From Pseudomonadota bacterium (GTDB lineage: Bacteria > Pseudomonadota > Gammaproteobacteria > Burkholderiales > JAJZUU01), in contig JAJZUU010000006.1 of assembly GCA_021848325.1 (NCBI GenBank), positions 1 through 64,000 of the forward strand: a stretch of 64,000 nucleotides of DNA, read 5' to 3'. Positions 1 through 62,372 of this stretch are shown here, in pieces. A program made the position numbers and the translations under genes. The notes beneath the pieces are model-generated. The model ran no database searches. It saw only the letters and a program-made list of their open reading frames with translations, and was not told where the DNA came from. Position 1 is the stretch's first letter. The number at the start of each line of letters is the position of its first letter.

Positions 1-60
1 CCCCCTCTGTACGATATGCACCGGAACGTCGGCGAGGAAGAAACGGGGCTTTCTGGGCAT
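1..60 (-). CDS. REP-associated (Y1, IS200-like) transposase, N-terminal fragment at window edge
   Basis: Reading the minus strand from the ATG at 60 gives a start MPRKPRF, then VPVHIVQRG, running off the window at base 1. This is the usual N-terminus of RAYT / transposase_17 proteins (M-x-R-x-x-R, then a VxxHVxQRG-like strand of the Y1 fold). These single-strand transposases are associated with REP sequences. Only 20 residues are visible, so the HUH and Tyr catalytic residues cannot be checked. The bases just upstream of its start carry short repeats built on CTGACCCCTTATCT (109-169). Confidence 0.6.
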   Translation of the reverse strand, partial: MPRKPRFFLADVPVHIVQRG

Positions 61-108
61 AGCGGTCTCCATGCATCATTCATGACCATAAGCATAGCCT
101 AGCACAAA

Positions 109-169
109 ACGGCTCTGACCCCTTATCTTAGCCAAACGGCTCTGCCCCCTTATCTCTGACCCCTTATCT
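109..169. repeat. short tandem-like repeats built on CTGACCCCTTATCT
   Basis: Three related units occur: 109-128 (ACGGCTCTGACCCCTTATCT), 136-155 (same with one change) and 156-169 (the core only). They lie upstream of the transposase start at 60 and just before the surviving IS1111 coding sequence. On the other strand they read AGATAAGGGGTCAG. Such motifs often border RAYT-type transposase genes, but the link here rests on proximity only. Confidence 0.5.
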
Positions 170-816
170 CTGTATCCCTGGGCAACCAGATCAGGGGGCT
201 GCTCTCGGAATTTGGCATCGTGATACCGAAAGGTATCGATGTCATCGCCAAACGGGTGCCGGAAATACTGGAAGACGGCGAGAACGGCTTGCCTGGAACG
301 ATGCGGCGCTTGCTCGAACGTCTGAGCGCCAACCTGAAAGAGATGGATCGCCAAGTGAATGAACTGGAGAAGCAAATCCGATTGTGGCACCTGGAGAACG
401 AAGCGAGCCGCAAGCTGGAAGCGATCCCGGGGATCGGGCCGATCACGGCCAGCGCCATTGTTGCCACCGTAGGCGATGCTCGCGAATTCAAGAACGGCCG
501 GCAGATGGCGGCGTGGATGGGGCTGGTACCCAGACAGAATTCCAGCGGCGGCAAGCAAACCCTGCTGGGCATCAGCAAGCGTGGCGACACCTATCTGCGC
601 ACCTTGCTGATCCACGGGGCGAGAGCGGTGACCCGGTTTGCCGAGAAGAAATCGGAGCCGGATAGCTGGCTCAGAAAACTGATGGGCAGGCGCAACAAGA
701 ACGTAGCGGCGGTTGCCTTGGCCAACAAGAATGCCCGAATCGTATGGGCGCTCTTGGCCAAAGACAGCATGTTCCGCCTGCATTACACCCCGGTGGCCGT
801 AACTGCCGGCGCGTAA
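160..816 (+). pseudogene. IS110/IS1111 family transposase, N-terminally truncated
   Basis: The reading frame open from 160 carries GNQIRGLLSEFG near its beginning, then a coiled linker, then the transposase_20 (helix-hairpin-helix) domain with AIPGIGPITASAIVATVG, AAWMGLVPRQNSSGGK and RGDTYLRTLLIHGARA. This is the C-terminal half of an IS1111-type transposase. The RuvC-like DEDD domain expected upstream is missing, because an in-frame stop at 157-159 precedes unrelated repeats. The first possible start inside is GTG at 220. It is almost certainly inactive, because the catalytic acidic residues lie in the lost domain. Confidence 0.8.
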
Positions 817-1109
817 TCGAGGCGGTTGAATAAAACCGGCACACAACGAGTTGAAGGAGACACACCACCGATTGCACAGGCAATCATGACATGATGGCGA
901 GACAGGTCAGACCGGGATTGAGCAAACCTGGCCCCGGCAATGCACCTTGGAGTGCGCGGCTCTGTTGAGGACTCAATCAGCGGATTCCATCAGGGACAGA
1001 GGCGATAAGCTTCACACAAAGTCCGGATGTATGGCTGCAATCTTTACCTACGCTCGATATCATCGATTGAAAGCTTGGCAAAAAAGTGGGCGTCCATGTA
1101 TGCCGGGGG
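817..1109 (+). other. non-coding right part of the IS1111 remnant; possible bridge-RNA region
   Basis: About 290 bases downstream of the transposase stop hold no convincing ORF. In IS1111-type elements the structured guide (bridge) RNA is encoded in this 3' non-coding segment, so this region is the place to look. I can see short self-complementary stretches such as GATTGCACAGGCAATC (870-885), but have not folded the sequence. Assignment as an RNA gene is an inference from the family layout. Confidence 0.35.
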
Positions 1110-1131
1110 ATACTTACTGCTTAACAGGTCC
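1110..1131. repeat. half copy of the 45-bp palindrome, cut by the IS1111 remnant
   Basis: Bases 1110-1131 match the right arm of the palindromes at 11062-11106 and 62328-62372 at 20 of 22 positions, and are followed by TAA as at 62373. The missing left arm is replaced by the IS right end, so the junction lies at the dyad centre. The last base (C1131) completes the TAG stop codon of the universal stress protein gene on the minus strand. Confidence 0.75.
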
Positions 1132-1577
1132 TAACCCCCGCGCACCAACAGTACCGGCTTCGGCGAGCGGCGCGCCACGTCCTCGGCCACGCTGCCCATA
1201 AGCAGGTGATCCAGTCCGCGGCGGCCGTGGGTGCCGAGGACGATTAGGTCCGCTGGCCATGCCTCTGCCTCTGCCACGATCGTGCCGGCGATGCGCCGGC
1301 CCGGGGATTGTATGTCGAGCAGCTTCGTTTCGGCTTCCACTCCCGACTTGCGTGCCACCGCCTGCGCGTCTTCCAGGATGGCGTTCCCCGATTGGCGCAG
1401 GGCCTGCTGAATCGCTCCCACGTCCACGAATTCCAAGTCCAGCGGGTACATGAGCGCATCAATGACATGGACGATGCGCAACTTGGCCTGCTGACTCTCG
1501 GCGAGCTTGATCGCTTCCTGCAAGGCTAGGCCGGAGGTGTCGCTGCCGTCCACCGGGACTAATATCTGCTTATACAT
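1131..1577 (-). CDS. universal stress protein, UspA family
   Basis: The protein has 148 residues, the usual length of a single-domain Usp. It begins MYKQILVPVDGSDTS, the typical first strand with the aspartate of the nucleotide site, and ends with the ATP-binding signature GTHGRRGLDHLLMGSVA followed by the strand KPVLLVR. The G-2x-G-9x-G(S/T) pattern is present, so it probably binds ATP. The start at 1577 has a good AGGAGG ribosome site about 8 bases upstream. The stop codon is completed by the first base of a palindromic repeat. Confidence 0.9.
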   Translation of the reverse strand: MYKQILVPVDGSDTSGLALQEAIKLAESQQAKLRIVHVIDALMYPLDLEFVDVGAIQQALRQSGNAILEDAQAVARKSGVEAETKLLDIQSPGRRIAGTIVAEAEAWPADLIVLGTHGRRGLDHLLMGSVAEDVARRSPKPVLLVRGG

Positions 1578-11045: not shown

Positions 11046-11293
11046 GAGCCTGCCGGACTTAGGACCTGTTAAGCATTAAGTGTAACACTTAATGCTTAAC
11101 AGGTCCTTAAAGGAAATCGGCTGCAAATCCGCCTGACCGGTCCATATTTCGCCGCTTTTTTGGCCAATAGAACGACTATATGACCTGCAAAATCGACAAA
11201 ATCTGTCCTCGGCCAGCCGAATTTTGCGAGCAGCCGCTACGCGGCTTGCCTGCCTGACCCGCTTCGCTTCGATTCTTCAAGCCCGACAGGCTC
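11046..11293 (+). repeat. MITE-like element, copy 1 (with nested palindrome and extra 39-40 bp)
   Basis: This copy matches the 160-bp element at 13509-13668 in the same orientation, with scattered changes. It has the same terminal repeats (GAGCCTGccGGACTT at the left; reverse complement GAGCCTGTCGGgCTT at the right) and is flanked by TTAG (11042-11045) and CTAG (11294-11297). It differs by carrying the 45-bp palindrome plus a duplicated TTA at 11059-11109, and an extra stretch near 11227-11265 with a small hairpin (AGCCGC-tac-GCGGCT). Its right end lies only 35 bases before the start of the DedA-PAP2-LssY gene. Confidence 0.8.
11062..11106. repeat. 45-bp palindromic element flanked by TTA duplication
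   Basis: The sequence starts GGACCTGTTAAGCATTAAG and is a perfect inverted repeat of two 22-base arms around a single A. It interrupts the MITE copy: the uninterrupted copy reads GGACTTAAAGG, here it reads GGACTTA-palindrome-TTAAAGG. This gives a 3-bp TTA duplication, as expected for a transposition event. The orientation, judged from the central base, is opposite to the copy at 62328-62372. Confidence 0.85.
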
Positions 11294-62327: not shown

Positions 62328-62372
62328 GGACCTGTTAAGCATTAAGTGTTACACTTAATGCTTAACAGGTCC
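62328..62372. repeat. 45-bp palindromic element flanked by TAA duplication
   Basis: Two 22-base arms (GGACCTGTTAAGCATTAAGTG... and its complement) surround a single T, and TAA occurs on both sides (62325-62327 and 62373-62375). It is the inverse of the copy at 11062-11106. Its last base completes the TAG stop codon of the minus-strand gene at 62372. TTTTAGGAGCCT just before it (62314-62325) matches the start of MITE copy 1. Confidence 0.85.

What the first reader, a model, noticed from the sequence alone, without database searches (positions are those of the whole stretch)
1089..1131. IS1111 remnant ends exactly at the centre of a copy of the palindrome
Bases 1110-1131 are one arm of the 45-bp palindrome (20 of 22 matches); the other arm is missing and replaced by the IS1111-type right end. 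Some IS1111-group elements are known to prefer palindromic targets such as REP sequences or attC sites. Here the palindrome itself may be the target, with the cut at the dyad centre.
Basis: partly seen in the sequence, partly recalled or inferred. Interest (0 to 1): 0.55.

Follow-up and report, generated by a model that had tools for sequence, protein, structure and literature searches.

The report
IS1111 remnant inside a REP-like hairpin

Summary
The palindrome arm is real: 1110-1131 matches the 45-bp palindrome in 20 of 22 bases. The IS does not end there. Relatives place the IS1111-group right end at base 1100 (subterminal repeat GTGGGCGTCCAT plus GTA). Bases 1101-1118 (TGCCGGGGGATACTTACT) are the right half of another dispersed hairpin, CCCCCGGCTCTGCCGGGGGATACTTACT, a REP-like repeat present in relatives and in this genome. 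The 45-bp palindrome is a fused pair of terminal inverted repeats of a MITE; only its last 14 bases (1118-1131, plus TAA) need to be MITE here.

The guide RNA test settles the target. Downstream of the transposase fragment lies a conserved IS1111-type guide RNA with two guides (931-939 and 957-963). Across relatives both guides match each element's own flanks far above shuffled pairings. The window's guides predict CGGCTCTGCCGGGGC, which matches the REP-like hairpin in 14 of 15 bases and the MITE palindrome in 7 of 15, as shuffles do. Intact relatives lie in CCCCCGG/CCGGGGG hairpins, one of them in a genome with no copy of the 45-bp palindrome.

IS1111 elements entering REPs, even REPs inside MITEs, are published.

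The parts
178..1100 (+). 5'-truncated IS1111-group insertion sequence remnant; its left end, left flank and the N-terminal part of the transposase are missing
   Evidence: similarity to the closest of 80 fetched relatives begins at window 176-184 and stops at about 1100-1103 in most
178..816 (+). C-terminal 212 residues of the IS110/IS1111-type transposase
   Evidence: translation; Pfam Transposase_20 PF02371 E 7.4e-28; up to 85% identity to a Nitrotoga relative
868..1005 (+). guide RNA (seekRNA / bridge RNA) region in the noncoding right end
   Evidence: 26-sequence alignment, 30 consensus pairs, 12 with compensatory changes; 96.9% of cells paired, 94 double-change cells against 28.4 in shuffles. 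The window's own single-strand fold is no better than shuffles
931..939 (+). right-target guide GCCCCGGCA; its reverse complement TGCCGGGGC matches the right flank TGCCGGGGG in 8 of 9
   Evidence: 54 distinct guides, mean 5.69 of 9 against 2.84 (sd 0.19) for shuffled pairings, 0 of 20000
957..963 (+). left-target guide CGGCTCT, same strand as the target's left half
   Evidence: 43 distinct guides in relatives, mean 5.51 of 7 against 2.93 (sd 0.16), 0 of 5000; the window's own left flank is lost
1086..1097 (+). right subterminal inverted repeat GTGGGCGTCCAT (left partner ATGGACGCCCAC in relatives)
1098..1100 (+). 3-bp right terminal extension GTA, the last bases of the IS
   Evidence: convention of 7 bp left and 3 bp right from PMC11187229 (passage)
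1101..1118 (+). right half of the REP-like hairpin target: TGCCGGGGG stem and ATACTTACT tail
1118..1131 (+). outer 14 bases of one MITE arm, TGCTTAACAGGTCC, the remnant of a second, unrelated palindromic repeat (1118-1119 shared with the hairpin tail)
1132..1134 (+). TAA, the expected 3-bp target duplication beside the MITE arm
   Evidence: 12 of 16 two-arm copies have identical 3-bp flanks, counted by eye
11062..11106 (.). intact 45-bp palindrome: two MITE arms fused around one base
62328..62372 (.). intact 45-bp palindrome, second copy

Best explanation
This is the right end of an IS1111-group element that inserted, guided by its own RNA, into the loop of a REP-like hairpin of the type CCCCCGGCTCT|GCCGGGGG-ATACTTACT. 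The right-target guide (931-939) pairs with the top strand of the right half and the left-target guide (957-963) carries the sequence of the left half, so both arms of one hairpin are read. The IS later lost its 5' part together with the left half of the hairpin. Just beyond the hairpin tail lies the outer end of a truncated MITE arm, of the family whose fused arms form the 45-bp palindrome. It was joined there by a separate deletion or insertion, perhaps through the short match ACTTA or TG. Shown: IS end, hairpin half, guides, covariation, match to flanking hairpins in relatives. Inferred: that this copy itself entered a CCCCCGGCTCT half (left flank lost), the order of events, and the MITE fusion.
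For: IS boundary at 1100 from relatives. The 17-mer 1103-1119 is exact in Nitrotoga L062 beside the same IS end. In 5 genomes, up to 2 mismatches, it has 13 places against 0 for the reversed control: 2 IS-interrupted, 8 intact CCCCCGG..CCGGGGG hairpins, 3 without a hairpin. All six IS ends seen with this target (window, L041, L062, L121, L122, L221) are followed by T[GA]CCGGGGG, with different sequence beyond in most. L041 is intact and its flanks are arms GGTAAACCCCCG / CGGGGGTTTACC. Both guides covary with flanks across relatives; guide RNA structure supported by compensatory changes. The predicted target CGGCTCTGCCGGGGC matches 14 of 15 in G144 hairpin L179 and in own-genome contig C78, but 7 of 15 in the MITE palindrome.
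Against: The window's left flank is gone, so this copy shows only half of its target. L062's left flank (TTAACCCAACATAGGAAATTCCCCGG) resembles a different hairpin type from its right flank, so it is not a clean single insertion. L062's guide matches its right flank in only 5 of 9. 18 of the 63 distinct guide/flank rows score 3 or less in the fixed register; several are one-base register shifts (for example L043, L048), others (for example L073, L144) are not obviously so. The exact hairpin CCCCCGGCTCTGCCGGGGG was not found in this genome; the nearest have 1 to 3 mismatches to the search pattern, and at 3 mismatches this genome's count (14) is only twice the control (7). The window RNA alone folds no better than shuffles.
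Confidence: 0.88

Rival explanations
1. One reading: the 45-bp palindrome is the target, and the IS cut at its dyad centre, leaving one arm.
For: 20 of 22 match of 1110-1131 to the arm, never reached in 100 shuffles; IS1111-group elements do enter terminal inverted repeats (IS4321/IS5075 in Tn21 ends, title only, cited in PMC11187229).
Against: The IS ends at 1100, not 1109; 1101-1119 occurs beside the same IS in L062 without the arm; the guides match the palindrome no better than shuffles (7 of 15); G324, inferred to be the genome of L062, has no copy of the arm at up to 2 mismatches.
Confidence: 0.03
2. The hairpin had been captured inside a MITE of this family, and the IS entered the hairpin within the MITE, as Coxiella IS1111 does in QMITE2. 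The MITE arm at 1118-1131 would then be the true right end of that composite.
For: Hairpin tail and MITE end are directly joined; other copies of the MITE carry hairpin-rich interiors of about 100-220 bp; the QMITE2 precedent is published (PMC5896051, passages).
Against: No other MITE copy seen in this genome carries this hairpin: the only other 17-mer place, on C22, has no MITE arm. The arm here is shorter than intact arms, which suggests truncation rather than a functional end. The left MITE arm cannot be seen.
Confidence: 0.09

Closest known systems
ISPa11, ISPpu9, ISPpu10 and ISPsy8, elements inserted specifically in REP sequences (Tobes and Pareja 2006, PMC1525189, abstract; PMC11187229, passages)
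   Same: IS110/IS1111-type elements that insert into short dispersed palindromes; ISPa11 has a guide RNA whose two short segments match both strands of the target
   Different: different host group, different hairpin sequence; the copy here is a 5'-truncated remnant
IS1111 of Coxiella burnetii in the GTAG REP inside QMITE2 (PMC5896051, passages)
   Same: IS1111 element inside a palindrome associated with a MITE
   Different: there the palindrome belongs to the MITE in about 20 copies; here the MITE arm is only next to the hairpin in one copy and does not match the guides
IS4321 and IS5075 in Tn21-family terminal inverted repeats (Partridge and Hall 2003, title only, seen in reference lists)
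   Different: here the transposon end (MITE arm) is not the target

Membership tests
IS1111 group of the IS110 family | transposase with IS110-type C-terminal domain (PF02371) | tested here: met
   E 7.4e-28, above the curated cut-off
IS1111 group of the IS110 family | N-terminal DEDD (RuvC-like) catalytic domain | not tested
   absent from the window because the element is truncated at about 178; not examined in relatives
IS1111 group of the IS110 family | subterminal inverted repeats of 11-13 bp with 7-bp left and 3-bp right extensions | tested here: met
   L041: TAATGGA-ATGGACGCCCAC left, GTGGGCGTCCAT-GTA right; the window has only the right one
IS1111 group of the IS110 family | long noncoding region downstream of the transposase holding a guide RNA, top-strand complement before bottom-strand match | tested here: met
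   817-1100; guides in that order, covarying with flanks
IS1111 group of the IS110 family | moves through a circular intermediate; guide RNA bound by transposase | not testable with these tools
   needs PCR and RNA-protein work
REP-like repeat as target | short dispersed palindrome in several copies | tested here: met
   CCCCCGGCTCTGCCGGGGG with tails such as ATACTTAC: G144 has 22 places at up to 3 mismatches against 1 for the control; this genome 14 against 7
REP-like repeat as target | GTAG or CGTC tag beside the hairpin (Di Nocera 2013, PMC3733652, abstract) | tested here: inconclusive
   the tail read from the other strand is AGTAAGTAT, close to but not GTAG
REP-like repeat as target | spread by a REP-associated tyrosine transposase | not tested
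   not examined
45-bp palindrome as target of this IS | guides match the palindrome; intact copies flanked by its arms | tested here: not met
   7 of 15 against the modal value 7 for shuffles; intact copies L041 and L062 lie elsewhere
MITE (the 45-bp palindrome) | terminal inverted repeats, short target duplication, several noncoding copies | tested here: met
   51 arm places at up to 3 mismatches, control 0; 12 of 16 two-arm copies with identical 3-bp flanks, by eye. The driving transposase was not identified

The most novel reading that the evidence does not exclude
The hairpin and the MITE arm formed one composite mobile unit, and the IS rides it, so a guide RNA that reads a REP hairpin gives the element access to every new place the MITE reaches, outside Coxiella and with an unrelated MITE.
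Probability: 0.08. Interest if true: 0.4.

Novelty: new member of a known kind. Interest (0 to 1): 0.24.

Why it matters
It shows that the target of a broken IS1111 copy can be told from its guide RNA even when half of the target is lost, and it adds a REP-reading clade in relatives of Nitrotoga. It also shows that two nearby palindromes can imitate a single IS target, which a scan by eye cannot separate.

Tried and rejected
Rejected: that the IS boundary lies at 1109/1110. Rejected: that CCGGGGGATACTTACTG belongs to the IS; L041, L121, L122 and L221 share only CCGGGGG and then diverge, and most relatives lack it. L124, first grouped with the others because CCGGGGG follows its IS end, has a different guide (TGACACCG) that fits its own flank TGACACCG, so it is not counted as the same target. 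Rfam gave no hit in 7 loci, L001 (window start) among them. The fold of the window RNA alone was not better than shuffles (124 of 200 folded at least as well). The right-flank test used an 8-base guide with shifts and gave a weaker but still clear result (5.30 against 3.12, 0 of 5000); one search is the main one. Its 54 guides come from 69 rows after 7 loci were dropped (L071, L146, L132, L133, L134, L158, L108: fragmentary or gapped guide). In the left-flank test the same 7 were left out, loci without a recognisable left end were skipped, one row (L097) had no left flank held, and L044 was a spurious left end; both were kept and scored low. Literature: 5 searches; that this particular IS and hairpin are not in print is not claimed beyond them.

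Full report
What was checked. The arm at 1110-1131 matches the palindrome arm with two mismatches (positions 1111 and 1117), and such matches do not occur in shuffles of the window. The window begins at base 1 of contig C96 of a 3.0-Mb, 119-contig genome, so nothing left of base 1 can be seen. The genus holds one genome only.

What the 45-bp palindrome is. In this genome the arm has 51 places at up to 3 mismatches and none for the reversed control. Many copies are two arms in inverted orientation around 1 to about 220 bases of DNA, often hairpin-rich; the 45-bp palindrome is the shortest common form, two arms around a single base, and one copy (L204) is shorter still. Counted by eye, 12 of 16 two-arm copies have identical 3-bp flanks, mostly TTA or TAA. 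It is therefore a MITE family. It was found in 3 of 399 genomes of the order: this one, G144 and G302. Single and truncated arms also occur (L202, L203), so one truncated arm at 1118-1134 is not unusual.

Where the IS ends. Eighty relatives were fetched. In 52 of the 58 whose alignment reaches base 1094 the similarity stops by 1106, mostly at 1100-1103. The left ends of relatives read TAATGGA-ATGGACGCCCAC (or CAATGGG-) and the right ends GTGGGCGTCCAT-GTA, with variants, the 7-bp and 3-bp extensions described for IS1111 elements (PMC11187229, passages). The last IS base in the window is therefore 1100. The 5' part is missing from about 178; what remains is 212 residues of transposase and the complete noncoding right end.

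What lies at the junction. After base 1100 comes TGCCGGGGGATACTTACTG. Nitrotoga L062 has the same IS end followed by TACCGGGGGATACTTACTG and then unrelated sequence. The 17-mer CCGGGGGATACTTACTG at up to 2 mismatches has 13 places in 5 genomes and none for the control. Ten belong to the repeat: two are the IS-interrupted copies and eight are intact hairpins such as AAAGCCCCCGGCTCTGCCGGGGGATACTTAC. The other three show no hairpin. G144 has 22 hairpin places at up to 3 mismatches against 1 for the control; this genome has 14 against 7, so several of its places will be chance.

Guide RNA. The right end holds a conserved RNA of about 138 bases. In 26 sequences (chosen from the relatives) 96.9% of cells pair, 12 of 30 pairs have compensatory changes, and there are 94 double-change cells against 28.4 in shuffles and 3 to 10 when the partner is slid. 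Two variable stretches lie on either side of a short covarying hairpin within the internal loop. The first, reverse-complemented, matches the right flank of its own element: 54 distinct guides, mean 5.69 of 9 against 2.84 (sd 0.19), 0 of 20000 shuffles. The second matches the left flank: 43 distinct guides, 5.51 of 7 against 2.93 (sd 0.16), 0 of 5000. These shuffles keep no account of relatedness between elements. The order, top-strand complement first, is that published for IS1111 elements (PMC11187229, passages and section 9). L124 shows the same rule with another target.

Which palindrome the guides read. The window's guides predict CGGCTCT and TGCCGGGGC, overlapping by one T: CGGCTCTGCCGGGGC. 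This fits the G144 hairpin and a hairpin on this genome's contig C78 in 14 of 15 bases and the C22 hairpin in 12. It fits the MITE palindrome in 7, the commonest value for shuffled MITE sequence. Intact element L041 lies between GGTAAACCCCCG and CGGGGGTTTACC, arms of a hairpin of this kind. All six IS ends seen with this target are followed by T[GA]CCGGGGG.

The MITE arm. The last 14 bases of the arm (1118-1131) are exact and TAA follows. The 8 bases before them agree with the MITE in 6 of 8, but agree fully with the hairpin tail as it stands in L062. The hairpin tail (ATACTTACT) and the arm (ACACTTAATG) share ACTTA, which could have served a deletion joining them; this is inference. A composite MITE that carried the hairpin, as in Coxiella QMITE2 (PMC5896051, passages), is not excluded, because the left side is lost.

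Comparison with the known. IS110/IS1111 elements in REP sequences are established (PMC1525189, abstract; PMC11187229). The finding is a new member of a known kind. What it adds is a guide-based identification of the target of a broken copy, and a warning that two adjacent palindromes can look like one target.

Noticed in passing
L062, flanks of the intact IS: The left flank resembles one hairpin type (TTAACCCAACATAGGAAATTCCCCGG, compare L182 and L185) and the right flank another (CCGGGGGATACTTACTG), as if two IS copies in different repeats had recombined.
   Followed up: partly
window 1-180: The minus strand of 1-62 reads by eye as MPRKPRFFLADVPVHIVQRG, which recalls the start of a REP-associated tyrosine transposase (recalled, not searched); repeats of CTCTGACCCCTTATCT follow at the point where the IS is cut. 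This stretch has no second copy in the genome assembly.
   Followed up: partly
L204 (G000:C2): A very short form of the MITE, GGACCTGTTAAGCATTAACAGGTCC, with TTA on both sides: two arms overlapping to a 25-bp palindrome that still has a target duplication.
   Followed up: no
L017 and L202 (G000:C33 and C74): MITE arms fused to GAGGTGCCC at the inner side; the same motif stands beside a hairpin in L191. Perhaps a second repeat family of this genome.
   Followed up: no
L221 (G324:C4): An IS right-end remnant of about 65 bases lies between a CCCCCGG-type hairpin on its left and the right half of another hairpin type (tail GGGGGGCATTTAACTT) on its right.
   Followed up: partly
L216 (G000:C80:76594-76793): A second IS110-type stretch in this genome, 71% identical to the window's over 200 bases.
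   Followed up: no
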